DNA of 64,000 bases from positions 933,226 to 997,225 of the forward strand of contig NZ_CP081183.1 of assembly GCF_019693215.1 (NCBI RefSeq). The letters run 5' to 3'. Below are positions 22,138-44,566 of this stretch, piece by piece. How positions within the stretch are numbered: the stretch's first letter is position 1; each line of letters starts with the position of its first letter. The notes under the pieces were generated by a model, which did no database searches, was not told the origin of the DNA, and saw nothing but the letters and a program-made list of their open reading frames with translations. Both the position numbers and the translations under genes were made by a program. The DNA comes from Salinarchaeum sp. IM2453. Lineage in GTDB: Archaea; Halobacteriota; Halobacteria; Halobacteriales; Salinarchaeaceae.

Positions 22138-23397
22138 TCAGTTATTGATATGATTTAGTACACCGTCAGTGTCACCGGGGACAGGCTCAGGGTCACCACC
22201 TGCTTTAGCTGCTGCCTCTGGGTCTTTCAGGAGATGGCCTGTTGTGAGGCAGACAACCTCTTCATCGTTAGAGACAACACCACTTGAGCGAAGCTTGCGA
22301 AGGCCAGCAATGGATGCAGCACTTGCCGGCTCGACCCCGATGCCCTCACCTGCAAGGTCACGCTGTGCGGCAGTAATCTCTTCGTCAGTGACGGAAACAG
22401 CGGTGCCGCCTGTCTCACGAATGCCAGGCAGGGCCTTCGGTGCATTTACTGGATTTCCAATTCGAATCGCAGTTGCTATCGTTTCAACATCGTTCCACCG
22501 CTCAATGCCGTCCCAGTTATTTTCGACTGCTTCGACAATTGGTGCTGCGCCCGCAGCTTGGACACCGGTAAGGGCTGGAACATCAGCCGGATCCAGTGCT
22601 CCGGGCTGTACCATTTCTCTAAATGCCTTATACAATGCGGAAGTATTGCCAGCATTACCGACTGGTAAGATGATTCGATCGGGGTATGATCCGTGACGCT
22701 CGTAATGTTCTTCAAGGATTTCAAGGCCGATTGTTTTCTGGCCCTCTAGACGGAATGGGTTAAGCGAATTGAGTAGATATACTTCGCCACGGGCAGCCAA
22801 TTCTTGGACGATATCAAGGCAGACATCAAAATTACCATCAACTTCAAGAATGCGAGCTCCATGAAGGCTCGCCTGAGCTACTTTCCCGGCAGCTACTTTC
22901 CCAGCAGGAAGTAACACAAGTGTCTCCATATTTCCCCGTGCTCCGTAGGCCGCTAAAGCAGCAGAGGTGTTACCAGTTGAGGCAACAGCCAAGCGGTCCA
23001 CGCCAAGTCTTTGTGCAACACCTACTCCGACGGTCATGCCTCTGTCTTTGAAAGACCCGGTCCCGTTCATTCCTTCATGTTTAACATGGAGAGACGAGAC
23101 ACTGAGTTCATCCTCTAGATCCGGCACGTGGTAAAGAGGAGTATCCCCTTCTTGGATTGAGACACCTTCTTCAAGTGGAAGCATATCAGTATACCGCCAT
23201 ACACCGCTTCCAGAGAAATCATCGAATGTAGGAAGAGAGTCATAGCGGACTTCGAGCAGTGAATTACAATCAGGACAGGTGTAGAGAATATCGTCAAACG
23301 GTGAGTAAGTCTCCTCGCAACCGATACACGAAAGCCAAACACCATTCGTTGCCTCGGGCGGCGATGGCTCAGCAGCTGAATCCAGTTCAAGCGTCAT
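22138..23397 (-). CDS. thrC: Threonine synthase
   Basis: PLP enzyme that turns O-phosphohomoserine into threonine; 419 residues, fold type II. The N-terminal zinc-ribbon-like part has CIGCEETYSPFDDILYTCPDC, an archaeal trait. The PLP lysine is in GTGSFKDRGM, phosphate binding is by STGNTSAALAAYGA, and LPVGNAGNTSA provides the other PLP contacts. It is convergent with serA; both belong to the aspartate/serine amino acid families. Upstream lies the degraded GC-rich gene, so its promoter must sit within the short A/T-rich part at 23398-23460. Confidence 0.96.
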   Translation of the reverse strand: MTLELDSAAEPSPPEATNGVWLSCIGCEETYSPFDDILYTCPDCNSLLEVRYDSLPTFDDFSGSGVWRYTDMLPLEEGVSIQEGDTPLYHVPDLEDELSVSSLHVKHEGMNGTGSFKDRGMTVGVGVAQRLGVDRLAVASTGNTSAALAAYGARGNMETLVLLPAGKVAAGKVAQASLHGARILEVDGNFDVCLDIVQELAARGEVYLLNSLNPFRLEGQKTIGLEILEEHYERHGSYPDRIILPVGNAGNTSALYKAFREMVQPGALDPADVPALTGVQAAGAAPIVEAVENNWDGIERWNDVETIATAIRIGNPVNAPKALPGIRETGGTAVSVTDEEITAAQRDLAGEGIGVEPASAASIAGLRKLRSSGVVSNDEEVVCLTTGHLLKDPEAAAKAGGDPEPVPGDTDGVLNHINN

Positions 23398-23463
23398 TAT
23401 ACAATGTCATGATATCAAGGGTCAAAAACCAGTAGGTTTCCGGCGAGCTATCACATGAAATAC

Positions 23464-23518
23464 TCACAGCGGTACCGAGGCAAAAGCCCACTCGTTTACG
23501 GGCGGAGATGAAACCGAC
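23464..23518 (+). repeat. Right-end-like hairpin motif abutting a gene fragment
   Basis: Starts CTCACAGCGGTACCGAGGC and ends CGTTTACGGGCGGAGATG then AAACCGAC. The head and tail match the copies at 33902-33953 (minus strand) and 42771-42822. The following bases AACTGGGAA are also shared with the copy at 33902. Immediately downstream begins the GC-rich gene fragment, which has no start codon of its own, as if the motif marks a recombination or insertion junction. Confidence 0.5.
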
Positions 23519-23527
23519 AACTGGGAA

Positions 23528-24324
23528 GTGCTCCACGGGATGTTCGCCCCCGGCCAGTTCGGGACGTTCCCCGAAGAGCACTCTCAGAGCGGCATCCGAC
23601 CGTACCTCGGGAGCGGCCTGCCGGACGTCGAATCCTACGACGACCTGTTCCTGATGCGGAACCCGGCCTATCGTTGGCTTCTCGACAGCCGCCCGCGAGA
23701 CGCGCTGAACACGCACGACAGCCGCGCGCAGAGCGGGTACCCGGCACTTTCCCACGAGACGATCATGGACAAGCCGGAGGGCGCTCGCAAGCAGCAGACC
23801 ACGAAGTGGTACATCAACACCTACCTGCACGCCGATGACCCCGATACGCTCCCGCTGGGCGAGGACGTGCTTGACGGCCTCCAGTTCGGGGGCAAACGGA
23901 ACTACGGCTACGGTATCACGCGGCTGAAGGACACGCAGGTTGTCGGCCTCAATGACCGGGACTACTCCCGGCTCGAAGACGGTGAGGCCCTCCTCGTGGA
24001 GGTGACAACGCCGTTCGTGCTGGAGTCGGAGTACCCCAAGCCGCCGATCAGGATGTCCCGTGATGGCGGAAGGAGAGTCGACGCGATCTTTGTGAGCGAG
24101 CGGAGAAGATCCTCGAGCAACGGGAGGTCTACAAGCTCCAGACCGTCGACCACGGACAGGTCGTGAAGTACGAGGGCGACCGGCCCATCGAGACCGCGAA
24201 GAGCGGCATCCTTCGGGTCGACAGTCACTTGAAGTACGGCTTCGGAGAGCTCCGAGTGAAGCCGGCCGAACCCCGGTCAGACCAGTGTAAGAACTCAGAG
24301 AAGAACGGCGAAACAACGGAGTGA
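23528..24324 (+). pseudogene. Degraded GC-rich gene, RAMP-like glycine motif, family not identified
   Basis: The stretch is much more GC-rich than its surroundings and uses G/C third positions, so it looks transferred. One frame runs from about 23528 to the region of 24045. Its continuation lies in another frame: ADQDVP, then a TGA at 24061-24063 where a Trp codon (TGG) would fit, then WRKESRRDLCERAEKILEQ on to a true stop at 24322-24324. So there is at least one frameshift and one nonsense change, and the 5' end is missing. The region has FGGKRNYGYG near the middle and LKYGFGELRVKP near the end; the glycine-rich loop is reminiscent of CRISPR-associated RAMP proteins, but I cannot confirm that family. 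A long opposite-strand frame here is a shadow of the GC bias. Confidence 0.7.
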
Positions 24325-24375
24325 GAAACCCGAACGATGACAGGCGAATCGACGACTAAACATCACGCGGTTCAG

Positions 24376-24404
24376 TGAATAGAGAAATCGTATTCACAAC
24401 AACT
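24376..24404 (+). repeat. 29-bp AT-rich repeat, copy A
   Basis: Reads TGAATAGAGAAATCGTATT and continues CACAACAACT. It matches the copies at 24437-24465 and 44532-44560 at most positions, with consensus TGAATAnnGAAATCGTATT then AACAACT. It lies in the gap between the degraded gene and the 3' end of kae1-bud32. Confidence 0.6.
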
Positions 24405-24410
24405 GATATA

Positions 24411-24470
24411 GAACGCACAATGTGCCCGTTCTGATCTGAATAACGAAATCGTATTACTAACAACTCACAT
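24411..24470 (+). repeat. About 60-bp composite repeat, copy B
   Basis: Begins with an inverted repeat GAACG-N11-CGTTC (24411-24431), then TGAATAACGAAATCGTATT and ACTAACAACTCA. The copy at 44506-44566 has the same order and the same 11-base spacing. Both are intergenic, just downstream of a minus-strand gene (kae1-bud32 here, polC there). Function unknown; it could be a small mobile-element end, a transcript 3' structure or a protein-binding site. Confidence 0.6.
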
Positions 24471-24493: not shown

Positions 24494-26107
24494 TCACTGG
24501 TACCTACCTCGTCCTTCAATTTCATGAAGGCGATCAATAACGGAGCTCGTATTGAGGGTAACATCTGCAGATTGATATCCAGAGAGAAGCGATTCTCGAA
24601 GCGGAACTGGATCGTCAACAGTACCAGTTATTGACTGATCAAAAATATGTAAGTCCATTGCAAAATCTTCAATATGATCAGTGTAATATCCCAGCCCAAA
24701 GTCAATAAAGTACACTTGTTCTGAGTCGACTCGGATATTACGGGTGGTAGGATCACCGTGTACAATACCGGTATTATGGAGCACAGCTAACTGCTTGCCG
24801 ACCGTGTGGATGTTATTTTCAGTAGGCACTGCCTGAAGATCTTCTGTTCCGACGTATAGAAACTCAAGTATCGTTTCATCGAGGTTGATGGCCAGAACTG
24901 GCGGTGTAGGAATTCCTGATCGTCTTGCTTCACTGGTAATTCGAGCCTCAGATGCGGTTCGTTCATTGCGAAGCCGCTCATCTAATTCTGGATGTCGGTA
25001 TGTTTTTTTATTTCGGCGCTTGGTGACTCGGTCATTTTGGTAGGTAACTGTTGCCTCTGCACCTTGGACTGACCCAGATAGGACTGAAGATTGGCTCTGG
25101 GCAACCGATTCCTCTGACCGCCAACTGACAGGAACCTCATCCGGGCGGTATGTTGGGATAACCTCTGAGTCATCAATAGAGATCGTATCACCTGCCGCAT
25201 ACATTTTTGCCCCGAGAACGGCAATCATACCGGCATTGTCACGGAGAAACCGTGGTTCGGGGGCATAAAAGGAAGCACCACGTTGTTCACACATCTCCTG
25301 TAACATCTCTCGAAGACGATCATTCTGTCCAACACCGCCGCCGAGAACTAACTCATCACTTCCAGTCAGGGAAAGCGCACGTTCTGCGACCTCAGTAAGC
25401 ATCCCAAAGATCGTTTCCTGAAGTCCGGTACAGACATTTTGTACGGGAACGCCGTCATCGACTGCGTCTTGTGCAGCTGTGACAATGCCTGCAAATGAAA
25501 AGTCCATTCCCTTGACGACATATGGAAGATCATAATATTCGCCTTCTTTTGCAGCCTGCTCAACTTTTGGTCCGCCAGGATGAGACCACCCAACGTGACG
25601 AGCAAACTTATCAAGACTGTTACCTACGCCAGTATCCATGGTCTCGCCAAGAATACGATATTTACCATTGTGGAATCCAAGTACGTGTGCATTTGCGCCG
25701 CTGGCATTAAGACAGATTGGGGAATCAAATCCGGATTGGTGACGGCCAATTTCAAGATGTGCAACCATGTGGTTTACACCGACGAGAGGAACATCAAGCC
25801 GAGCTGCAAGCGTGCGTGCTGCTGTTCCAACAATGCGAAGACAAGGTCCAAGCCCAGGACCGCGAGAGAAAGCTATTGCATCAATATCGTATGTCGAATC
25901 AGGCGAAGCAGTATCGGCTGCATGGTCCAAAATAGCATCAATGACGGCAGGCAGCGCATCAGCCATGTGGCTGGCTGCTTCTTGAGGGTCAATACCTCCA
26001 TCAGAAGGGAGGTATGCATCTGACTCTATCTGGACATGGTTCTGGTCGACGTCAAAAAGAGCTGCACTTGCGGCCCAAGCAGTTCCTTCAAGACCAAGAA
26101 TGCGCAT
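24494..26107 (-). CDS. kae1-bud32: Kae1-Bud32 fusion, tRNA t6A synthase and associated kinase
   Basis: Bifunctional KEOPS core protein, 537 residues. The Kae1 half (about 1-330) transfers threonylcarbamoyl to A37 of ANN-decoding tRNAs; it shows AFSRGPGLGPCLRI, the metal site HMVAHLEIGRHQ, and LVLGGGVGQNDRLREM. A linker of about 40 residues leads to the Bud32 kinase/ATPase half with GIVHGDPTTRNIR (catalytic loop) and YFIDFGLGYY (DFG). Fusion is common in euryarchaea. It lies three bases downstream of rps27ae in what looks like an rps24e-rps27ae-kae1 unit, the usual archaeal neighbourhood. Cgi121 is encoded 6.5 kb away beside hel308. Confidence 0.96.
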   Translation of the reverse strand: MRILGLEGTAWAASAALFDVDQNHVQIESDAYLPSDGGIDPQEAASHMADALPAVIDAILDHAADTASPDSTYDIDAIAFSRGPGLGPCLRIVGTAARTLAARLDVPLVGVNHMVAHLEIGRHQSGFDSPICLNASGANAHVLGFHNGKYRILGETMDTGVGNSLDKFARHVGWSHPGGPKVEQAAKEGEYYDLPYVVKGMDFSFAGIVTAAQDAVDDGVPVQNVCTGLQETIFGMLTEVAERALSLTGSDELVLGGGVGQNDRLREMLQEMCEQRGASFYAPEPRFLRDNAGMIAVLGAKMYAAGDTISIDDSEVIPTYRPDEVPVSWRSEESVAQSQSSVLSGSVQGAEATVTYQNDRVTKRRNKKTYRHPELDERLRNERTASEARITSEARRSGIPTPPVLAINLDETILEFLYVGTEDLQAVPTENNIHTVGKQLAVLHNTGIVHGDPTTRNIRVDSEQVYFIDFGLGYYTDHIEDFAMDLHIFDQSITGTVDDPVPLRESLLSGYQSADVTLNTSSVIDRLHEIEGRGRYQ

Positions 26108-33509: not shown

Positions 33510-33960
33510 GGAGATTGTGATTGACCACCTCCCACCCGTGAACAGGGTGAGATTCCCATGGCACCGCACCGCTGGGTTGGGAGTTTCAGGGTTGCAGTCC
33601 AATCGGCATGACCGGACTACTGGCAGGGTTGTTCGAAAATCGGAGATTTTCGTGATGATGAGACTCTTCGATTCTCGAACCACCAAGCAGCGTCTCCGAT
33701 CCCGGCATGGGATTCAGCGTTACCGTGCTGATCGGAATCCACAACCAGCGGCTTGAAGGGGATGCCTTCAGACGTGGTGTGGCCCGAATCCCGATATTAT
33801 CCGTTTATTCGGGCGGCAAGGACGCCTCGGTGCAATCGTGGCTATGTCTCGATCACACATAACACTCCGGAATAGCTCAATCTCGTGGAGAGATTCCCAG
33901 TTGTCGGCTTCATCCCACGGCTAAAGCCGATGAGCGCTCGCCTCGCTACCGCTGTAAATC
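33510..33960 (-). repeat. Roughly 0.4-kb repeat element, copy E3
   Basis: Read on the minus strand: head TTTACAGCGGTAGCGAGGCG (about 33952-33933), tail of the head hairpin GATGAAGCCGACAACTGGGA, a 100-base diverged part, then GATAATATCGGGATTCGGGC, ACACCACGTCTGAAGGC, AAGCCGCTGGTTGTGGATTCC, a hairpin insert, and CCAGTAGTCCGGTCATGCCG, ending with a GC hairpin and GGTCAATCAC near 33517. Element E4 at 42766-43128 has the same blocks in the same order in the opposite orientation. No intact reading frame is present. Likely a tnpB-less derivative of an IS1341-type element. Confidence 0.65.
33638..33690. repeat. Double-hairpin insert within element E3
   Basis: CGAAAATCGGAGATTTTCG and a neighbouring imperfect stem around CTTCGATTCTCG form two hairpins absent from E4. 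The arrangement, two stems joined by a segment with CATCACGAAAA (minus strand), resembles the unit at 32184-32244. Confidence 0.5.
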
Positions 33961-42765: not shown

Positions 42766-43128
42766 CTACTTACAGCGGTAGCAAGGCGAAATCCCACCCG
42801 TTTACGGGGGGTGAAGTCGACAGCTGAGAATCTATCTATGGGTTTTGCTCTCCTACTGTTTTATATGCAATCAGAGCGTGGGTATGATGGTACCGAGCAG
42901 CTCAGTCGCCCAAGGAACTGGATAATCTCGGGAGCGGACCACACCACATTTGAAGCGATCCCTTCTGGGCCGCTGGCTGTGTATTTCCAAGTAAACCCGG
43001 TAACTTTGAATCCCACGGGATCAGAAACGGCGGCTTGGCCTCGCCAGTAGTCCGGTCATGTCGACTGGTCTGCAAACCCGTAATTCCCAACGTGGGAATC
43101 CCACGGATTCAGCCGTGAGGGGAGTCAA
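42766..43128 (+). repeat. Roughly 0.36-kb repeat element, copy E4
   Basis: Begins CTTACAGCGGTAGCAAGGCG, closes its first hairpin with GGTGAAGTCGACAGCTGAGA, then after a variable part shows GGATAATCTCGGGAGCGG, CACACCACATTTGAAGCGA, GGGCCGCTGGCTGTGTATTTCC, CCAGTAGTCCGGTCATGTCG and a terminal hairpin CACGGATTCAGCCGTGAGG followed by GGAGTCAATCAC at 43117-43128. Blocks match E3 at 33510-33960 in order. The 554-base gap 42669-43222 has no other feature I can support; a 100-codon open frame here is not convincing. Confidence 0.65.
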
Positions 43129-44505: not shown

Positions 44506-44566
44506 GAACGGGCTTGTTGCACGTTCTAAACTGAATAATGGAATCGTTTTATCAATAACTCAAAAT
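44506..44566 (+). repeat. About 60-bp composite repeat, copy C
   Basis: GAACG-N11-CGTTC at 44506-44526, then CTGAATAATGGAATCG and TTTTATCAATAACTCA. Order and spacing equal copy B at 24411-24470. It lies about 40 bases beyond the stop codon of polC. Confidence 0.6.

What the first reader, a model, noticed from the sequence alone, without database searches (positions are those of the whole stretch)
23460..24324. GC-rich broken gene with a RAMP-like loop, joined to a right-end-like hairpin
From 23520 base composition jumps to GC-rich. The frame lacks its 5' end exactly at the hairpin motif, has a frameshift around 24040-24047 and a TGA at 24061 where TGG would continue the protein. The FGGKRNYGYG loop brings CRISPR RAMP proteins to mind, but I cannot name a family. 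The meeting of a transposon-end-like motif and a foreign gene fragment suggests capture or insertion at that junction.
Basis: partly seen in the sequence, partly recalled or inferred. Interest (0 to 1): 0.5.

Follow-up and report, generated by a model that had tools for sequence, protein, structure and literature searches.

The report
Relic of a RAMP-carrying haloarchaeal transposon
The broken GC-rich gene is a dead piece of a jumping DNA element of salt-loving archaea that carries relatives of CRISPR proteins; better-preserved copies elsewhere show that these CRISPR-like genes move as part of a transposon.

Summary
The GC-rich piece 23534-24297 is a 5'-truncated, frameshifted, stop-bearing copy of a gene 93% identical (DNA) to the last gene of a cassette on a Halobacterium plasmid. 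The protein is a RAMP: 34 of 35 relatives match Cmr3 models and the predicted fold matches Cas6 and Cmr subunits. The cassette (RAMP1-2-3) is orthologous to the core of canonical haloarchaeal RAMP (HRAMP-like) operons but lacks their DEDDh exonuclease and HNH gene. The hairpin on the left is not the gene's transposon end; it resembles an IS200/IS605 left end. The real end is 3' of the gene, a 31-bp repeat at 24375-24405. Related units have it inverted at both ends, 4-bp NTAN target duplications (19 of 20 elements I chose; 33 of 47 unfiltered pairs) and, in one case, an exact empty site in sister plasmids. Some carry an ISH3-like DDE transposase. An end follows RAMP3 in 45 of 56 trio loci, 0 of 32 canonical loci. 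So a derived CRISPR-like module is cargo, or part, of a haloarchaeal transposon family. The window copy is a relic; the same genome holds one intact 3.5-kb copy. Function is untested; a passenger (defence) role seems likelier than CAST-like transposition.

The parts
23461..23527 (+). Palindromic piece that resembles the left end of an IS200/IS605-type element (PATE-like); abuts the truncated gene
   Evidence: Homologues at two other places in the window and in L003, L004, L005, L184; in L003 directly upstream of tnpA-like and tnpB-like ORFs
23534..24040 (+). RAMP3 pseudogene, first frame (residues 47-216 of 302)
   Evidence: tblastn 91% identity; DNA 93% identical to L013
24034..24297 (+). RAMP3 pseudogene, second frame (residues 215-302), with TGA at 24061-24063
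   Evidence: tblastn 89% identity; stop seen in translation
24298..24374 (+). 3' tail between RAMP3 and the transposon end, shared with Halobacterium copies and with G000:C1:782239-782347
24375..24405 (+). 31-bp right terminal repeat of the RAMP transposon; followed by ATAT (NTAN form)
   Evidence: 45.8 of 54.3 bits; aligned with other right ends
24436..24466 (+). Second, decayed right-end-like repeat, probably of an older element of the same family
   Evidence: 39.7 bits

Best explanation
The feature is the decayed right part of a haloarchaeal transposon that carries a derived CRISPR-like (HRAMP-type) RAMP trio. SHOWN by sequence in relatives: 31-bp terminal inverted repeats; RAMP1 (Csm3/Cas7-like), RAMP2 (no family match) and RAMP3 (Cmr3-like) reading toward the right end; often a small HTH gene divergent from them; in a subset an ISH3/IS4-like DDE transposase toward the left end; 4-bp NTAN target duplications; one exact empty site. 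INFERRED: the DDE transposase cuts at the repeats and moves the unit, and is supplied in trans for transposase-less units. INFERRED: the RAMP trio forms a small RNA-binding complex kept by selection for its own benefit, probably interference with other mobile DNA, and rides as a passenger. The window copy, close to Halobacterium plasmid copies, is dead: an IS200/IS605-type left end is joined to codon 47 of RAMP3, the left part of the unit is gone, and the rest has a frameshift and a stop. My odds: relic of this transposon about 0.95; passenger-defence role about 0.5; the confidence below is for the whole statement.
For: 93% DNA identity to L013 over 23534-24412. RAMP3 family: Cmr3 models in 34 of 35 members, fold match to Cas6/Cmr. 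RAMP1 and RAMP2 orthologous to canonical operon genes. End motif 3' of RAMP3 in 45 of 56 trio loci at 12 bits or more, 0 of 32 canonical loci, 0 of 88 shuffled regions (the matrices were built from trio loci). Target duplications in 19 of 20 chosen elements against 9.7% in crossed pairs; unfiltered pairs 14 of 17, 8 of 13, 6 of 10, 5 of 7, overlapping sets. Empty site: the 6,008-bp pNRC200 element is absent from 6 records; in the 3 read, the joined flanks match at 74 of 76 bases with one GTAA. dN/dS 0.055, 0.133 and 0.078 for RAMP1-3 (L013/L014). Passenger role: only 15 of 56 trio loci have a transposase nearby, and short elements without RAMP genes have matching duplications too.
Against: Left ends were found for only a part of the trio loci, not for the RAMP unit of L014 itself; 11 of 56 trio loci show no end; L020 has unequal duplications. 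The element with the empty site has lost RAMP1. The left end of the window copy is gone, so its own transposition is inferred from relatives. Against a pure passenger role: of the 12 closest transposase places 11 have RAMP genes beside them. No defence assay exists.
Confidence: 0.65

Rival explanations
1. CAST-like element: the RAMP trio, without its nucleases, directs or licenses the DDE transposase, perhaps with a guide RNA that is not encoded in an array (for instance read-through RNA at the right end, toward which the RAMP genes are transcribed).
For: In 392 sampled genomes RAMP genes stand beside the transposase in 11 of the 12 best places and in 7 of 7 after leaving out the five that correspond to rows of the profile. 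Exonuclease and HNH genes are absent from the trio clade. Both transposase and trio are under purifying selection.
Against: Trio kept without transposase in 41 of 56 loci; a 4,917-bp transposase unit without RAMP genes (L014/L213) and MITEs have matching duplications. No CRISPR-like repeats in three stretches searched; insertion sites dispersed, no shared target beyond weak matches at E 0.016. Over all 27 transposase places the RAMP association is 15 of 27.
Confidence: 0.18
2. The trio is a copy-control or self-regulation device of the transposon rather than a defence or targeting module.
For: A small HTH gene is often divergent from the trio; trio sits inside the ends.
Against: The orthologous trio exists outside transposons with nucleases, so its ancestral role was probably not transposon control.
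Confidence: 0.1
3. One reading: a foreign gene captured by the hairpin-ended element.
For: The fragment does abut an IS200/IS605-type end.
Against: The gene has its own transposon end on the other side, at a spacing that recurs in many loci.
Confidence: 0.03

Closest known systems
HRAMP, haloarchaeal RAMP system (Makarova et al. 2019, fnz079; not held, known here through passages of PMC8730458 and PMC12669027)
   Same: Diverged Cas5/Cas7-type RAMP proteins, haloarchaeal, no array; RAMP1, RAMP2 and RAMP3 are 59%, 50% and 51% identical to those of operons with exonuclease and HNH
   Different: Trio without the exonuclease and HNH genes, inside a terminal-repeat transposon with target duplications, partly with a DDE transposase
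ISH3 / IS4 family insertion sequences
   Same: DDE transposase, NF033541 ISH3 E 1.3e-23, Pfam DDE_Tnp_1 above cut-off; short terminal repeats and short duplications
   Different: Below the ISH3 equivalog cut-off (83.5 against 225 bits); about 610 aa; unit of 3.4-10.9 kb with cargo; duplications of 4 bp, while ISH3B/C/D are listed with 5 bp in PMC10264941 (passages)
CRISPR-associated transposons (Tn7-like CASTs, CasMu, telomeric)
   Same: CRISPR-derived effector genes without their nucleases beside a transposase inside one mobile unit
   Different: No array seen, other transposase family, no sign of guided integration; known ones listed in PMC12669027 (passages) and PMC10910872 (passages)
PATEs / IS200-IS605 elements of Haloquadratum (PMC3119063, passages)
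   Same: Short palindromic ends, often involved in element-into-element insertions; a model for the left hairpin piece
   Different: Only about 67 bp of a left-end type is present; not assigned to a named family

Membership tests
HRAMP | Diverged Cas5/Cas7-type RAMP proteins | tested here: met
   Cmr3 models in 34 of 35 RAMP3 members; RAMP1 weak Csm3 match E 4.7e-4; fold of RAMP3
HRAMP | Orthology to the array-less operons with nucleases | tested here: met
   hhalign RAMP1 59%, RAMP2 50%; RAMP3 51%. That those operons are HRAMP rests on the published description, since the original paper was not held
HRAMP | No CRISPR array | tested here: met
   No array-like repeats in L019 and L165 units and part of L013; other loci not searched
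HRAMP | Associated HNH or PD-(D/E)xK nuclease | tested here: not met
   HNH and exonuclease absent within 4.5 kb 3' in the trio clade (labels defined by these genes, the single-branch split is the result); PD-(D/E)xK not specifically tested. Five loci instead have a TnpB-like RuvC half-protein
Terminal-inverted-repeat DDE transposon | Inverted terminal repeats | tested here: met
Terminal-inverted-repeat DDE transposon | Target-site duplication | tested here: met
   19 of 20 chosen elements; 33 of 47 unfiltered pairs in overlapping sets. Not testable for the window copy, whose left end is lost
Terminal-inverted-repeat DDE transposon | Empty site | tested here: met
   pNRC200 element, 6 records without it, 3 read
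ISH3 family | NCBIfam ISH3 equivalog cut-off | tested here: not met
   83.5 bits, cut-off 225
CRISPR-associated transposon (CAST) | CRISPR effector genes and transposase in one mobile unit | tested here: met
   9 of the 17 RAMP-bearing elements have a transposase; 8 do not; the window copy has none
CRISPR-associated transposon (CAST) | CRISPR array or homing guide | tested here: not met
   No array-like repeats in three stretches
CRISPR-associated transposon (CAST) | RNA-guided integration | not testable with these tools
   Needs experiment; insertion flanks share no clear target
IS200/IS605 (left piece only) | Terminal sequence next to tnpA and tnpB | tested here: met
   Homologue in L003, ORFs recognised by eye; one locus inspected

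The most novel reading that the evidence does not exclude
A new kind of CRISPR-derived transposon outside Tn7, Mu and telomeric elements: an array-less RAMP trio that has lost its nucleases assists or guides an ISH3-like DDE transposase in haloarchaea, with a guide RNA from an unknown source, possibly read-through RNA at the right end, toward which the RAMP genes are transcribed.
Probability: 0.18. Interest if true: 0.92.

Novelty: new variant of a known kind. Interest (0 to 1): 0.6.

Why it matters
HRAMP is an orphan derivative of CRISPR without array or known function. Finding that a clade of it lies inside a terminal-repeat transposon, with target duplications, an empty site and in part its own transposase, gives it a mobile carrier and makes its role testable in Halobacterium salinarum, whose plasmids pNRC200 (NRC-1) and pHSAL1 (91-R6) carry such genes. 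If the trio takes part in transposition, this is a further capture of CRISPR machinery by a transposon; if it is cargo, it shows how array-less RAMP modules spread.

Tried and rejected
Phage or virus origin: no match in the phage collection by DNA or protein; 16 pattern matches in viral contigs, none confirmed. Sequence searches of solved structures with RAMP1 and with the exonuclease gene gave nothing. The RAMP2 model was poor (mean pLDDT 62.9) and was not searched. A conserved RNA upstream of RAMP1 was looked for by eye in an alignment of 27 of 28 loci tried (no structure statistics were run): only a small ORF shared by part of them and, in L042 and L049, a tRNA-Leu-like stretch that ARAGORN calls in L042 only and Rfam's gathering threshold in neither. 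Array-like direct repeats: none in three stretches, only short two-copy families. Shared insertion targets: only weak matches at E 0.016. Papers: the original HRAMP paper and the ARAMP paper are not held. Searches listed no paper that I could recognise as describing RAMP trios in haloarchaeal transposons; the library lacks most subscription journals.

Rows dropped: the 20 elements were picked by me after seeing the pairs; left out were second or low-scoring pairs (L013, L029, L044, L051), a 99-bp pair (L035), same-locus repeats, and the short elements of this genome, including four pairs there that disagree. One search kept 80 of 90 relatives. The tree used 85 of 88 proteins (identical ones dropped) and only full-length intact ones. 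A few of the 88 rows are the same locus under two ids (L015/L050, L022/L068).

Full report
WHAT IS THERE. The window lies in a 2.66-Mb single-contig haloarchaeal genome, G000:C1:933226-997225. The piece 23534-24297 has GC 0.639 against 0.478 for the window. It matches the last gene of a cassette on Halobacterium plasmids: 93.0% DNA identity over window 23534-24412 to NZ_LN831303.1 (L013) and 90.9% over 23533-24409 to NZ_CP038632.1 (L014). 29 of 72,556 plasmid records have a DNA match to the region, 19 over at least 80% of it; no phage record matches. The copy is broken: residues 1-46 are missing, the frame changes near 24034-24040, and a TGA at 24061 stands where relatives have Trp.

THE PROTEIN. 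It is a RAMP. The intact relative in L013 matched PADLOC Cmr3 at E 3e-6; of 35 aligned members (25 from trio loci, 10 from canonical loci) 34 match PDLC01478 Cmr3 and 32 match PDLC00979 Cmr3 at E 0.01 or better. A model of the family (mean pLDDT 75.7) matched Cas6 chains (4ilm, best E 7.6e-5) and Cmr subunits (9l7c_C E 3.3e-4, 9x25_C E 4.7e-4) in the PDB; TM-scores of these are modest, about 0.3-0.5. Pfam and NCBIfam gave no match for it.

THE CASSETTE. Upstream lie RAMP1, with weak matches to Csm3 (E 4.7e-4) and TIGR03986 (E 0.0033, far below cut-off), and RAMP2, with no match. A scan of genome contigs confirmed 90 relatives of RAMP3 and kept 80, in 79 loci. The gene maps fall into two arrangements. 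In one, a trio is followed by a DEDDh-type exonuclease (PADLOC E 1.5e-4) and an HNH protein (E 3.5e-5; both for L077), which fits the published description of HRAMP (passages of PMC8730458, and PMC12669027). In the other, the trio lacks them. The trios are orthologous: RAMP1 59%, RAMP2 50% (hhalign), RAMP3 51%. In a tree of 85 RAMP3 proteins the 32 rows with exonuclease or HNH lie on one side of one branch, support 100/100.

THE TRANSPOSON. L013 and L014 share 8.8 kb at 90% identity, and the similarity stops within a few bases of a motif that also ends the window copy. The 31-bp motif (24375-24405 in the window, 45.8 of 54.3 bits) recurs 3' of RAMP3 in other loci, and a sister group has a variant of it. 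Searching from 60 bases before to 300 after the RAMP3 stop, 45 of 56 trio loci have one of the two forms at 12 bits or more (34 type 1, 11 type 2), against 0 of 32 canonical loci and 0 of 88 shuffled regions; at 24 bits it is 38 of 56. The matrices were built from trio loci and a few rows are the same locus twice, so the contrast with the canonical loci is the informative part. Inverted copies lie to the left in part of the loci. The four bases outside paired ends agree in 14 of 17 pairs, 8 of 13, 6 of 10 (this genome) and 5 of 7; the sets overlap and several failures are unrelated end pairs. In 20 elements that I picked, 19 agree, all 40 flanks have the form NTAN, and crossed pairs agree in 9.7%. 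Seventeen of the 20 bear RAMP genes (16 agree; nine with transposase, eight without; L015, L037 and L106 have incomplete trios, and RAMP1 of L046 is poorly matched). The exception is L020. No left end was found for the RAMP unit of L014.

EMPTY SITE. The 6,008-bp element of pNRC200 is present with its flanks at 100% identity in 6 records and missing in 6 Halobacterium records that match only the flanks, over 4,088 or 4,089 bases. In the 3 that I read, the joined flanks match at 74 of 76 bases with a single GTAA. This element has no RAMP1 match, keeps 74% of RAMP2, and RAMP3. It is the strongest evidence that RAMP genes move with the unit.

TRANSPOSASE. A DDE transposase related to ISH3/IS4 (NF033541 E 1.3e-23 but below cut-off; DDE_Tnp_1 above cut-off) lies toward the left end in part of the units, with forms only 32-37% identical to that of L013. 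Of 392 genomes drawn from the order, 23 have a member at E 1e-60 or better. I fetched the surroundings of all 27 places (two of the 28 rows are one broken gene; some stretches are cut by contig ends). RAMP genes stand by it in 15 of 27 and in 11 of the 12 best; five of those 12 correspond to rows of the profile, and without them it is 7 of 7. The 12 of 27 without RAMP genes are one RAMP-less unit with matching duplications (L213), remnants (L166, L227) and others, mostly distant. The reverse association is weak: 15 of 56 trio loci have a transposase within 9 kb. RAMP3 homologues of both arrangements occur in 89 of 392 genomes.

SELECTION. dN/dS between L013 and L014 is 0.055 (RAMP1), 0.133 (RAMP2) and 0.078 (RAMP3); the transposase gives 0.126 (L013/L029); seven other RAMP and transposase pairs give 0.093-0.155; the two window fragments against L013 give 0.291 and 0.264.

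THIS GENOME. Sixteen RAMP3 matches; only 1485810-1486712 spans nearly the whole profile in an open frame. It lies in a 3,540-bp unit (L165:7709-11248) with RAMP1-3, an HTH-like ORF and a further ORF, no transposase, and ATAA on both sides. The end core occurs 16 times exactly and 37 times with up to two mismatches, against 1 for the backward control. Short elements of 110 bp (three copies), 243, 402 and 517 bp have matching duplications; pairs in L175, L176 and L181 do not. The best transposase match is a 552-base fragment, E 5.6e-94. The window copy is another lineage, 93% like the Halobacterium copy and 72% like the intact local one.

LEFT SIDE. The palindromic piece has relatives at window 42767-42830 and 33880-33955 and in other loci. 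In L003 the relative is directly upstream of tnpA-like and tnpB-like ORFs, so it is a left end, not a right end. Haloquadratum genomes are known for such pieces and for insertions of mobile elements into each other (PMC3119063, passages). The simplest history, inferred, is that such an element entered the RAMP unit or its border and a deletion removed its body together with the left part of the RAMP unit. The flanking host ORFs 22138-23397 and 24494-26107 look to me like threonine synthase and Kae1-Bud32 (recalled, not searched).

MECHANISM. Shown: mobility of the unit (ends, duplications, empty site) and conservation of the trio. Inferred: the DDE transposase moves it; the trio is an RNA-binding complex. 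For a passenger role speaks that the trio is kept without transposase in 41 of 56 loci and that units without RAMP genes have matching duplications. For a CAST-like role speaks that the closest transposases nearly always come with RAMP genes and that exonuclease and HNH are gone. Some units have just upstream of RAMP1 a 220-aa TnpB-like half-protein (Pfam Cas12f1-like_TNB E 4.7e-10; Cas12u3 E 1.3e-13) that keeps residues aligned with the RuvC D/E/D and the zinc ribbon of TnpB (catalytic assignment recalled); dN/dS 0.15-0.20. It could serve as a nuclease.

NOVELTY. The passages that I read describe HRAMP as array-less and tied to HNH and PD-(D/E)xK nucleases, and CRISPR transposons as Tn7-like, Mu-like or telomeric (PMC12669027; PMC10910872; PMC10293859; start of the abstract of PMC11406308). 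The searches listed no paper that I recognised as describing RAMP trios in ISH3-like transposons. The original HRAMP paper was not available and may mention part of this.

Noticed in passing
L020:7753-8412, L033:7697-8311, L052:7918-8574, L216:12484-13140: A 220-aa TnpB/Cas12f-like half-protein (RuvC and zinc-ribbon part, N-terminal part missing) sits directly upstream of RAMP1 and is conserved.
   Followed up: partly
L042:8207-8301 and the matching stretch in L049: A tRNA-Leu-like stretch inside the RAMP transposon, upstream of RAMP1; called by ARAGORN in L042 only, no Rfam gathering match.
   Followed up: partly
L171, L174, L177, L168, L182, L179 (this genome): Short elements of 110-517 bp with the same ends and 4-bp duplications, MITE-like derivatives of the RAMP transposon.
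   Followed up: partly
L013:4183-6876 and L014:17716-22632: Other cargo between the ends: a TPR protein with weak P-loop matches in L013, and a metallophosphoesterase gene in the RAMP-less second unit of L014.
   Followed up: no
L241 (Halobacterium sp. GN101 megaplasmid 2): Related transposase unit at the same place as the pNRC200 element, with a 3.8-kb ORF as cargo; right flank matches at 39 of 40 bases, left flank only 24 of 40.
   Followed up: partly
window 44531-44561, 33880-33955, 42767-42830: A weak RAMP-transposon end (23.7 bits) and two more copies of the IS200/IS605-like palindromic piece.
   Followed up: no
L070 (3,067-bp contig titled Elusimicrobia MAG): A RAMP trio on a short contig filed under a bacterium; possibly mis-binned haloarchaeal DNA.
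   Followed up: no
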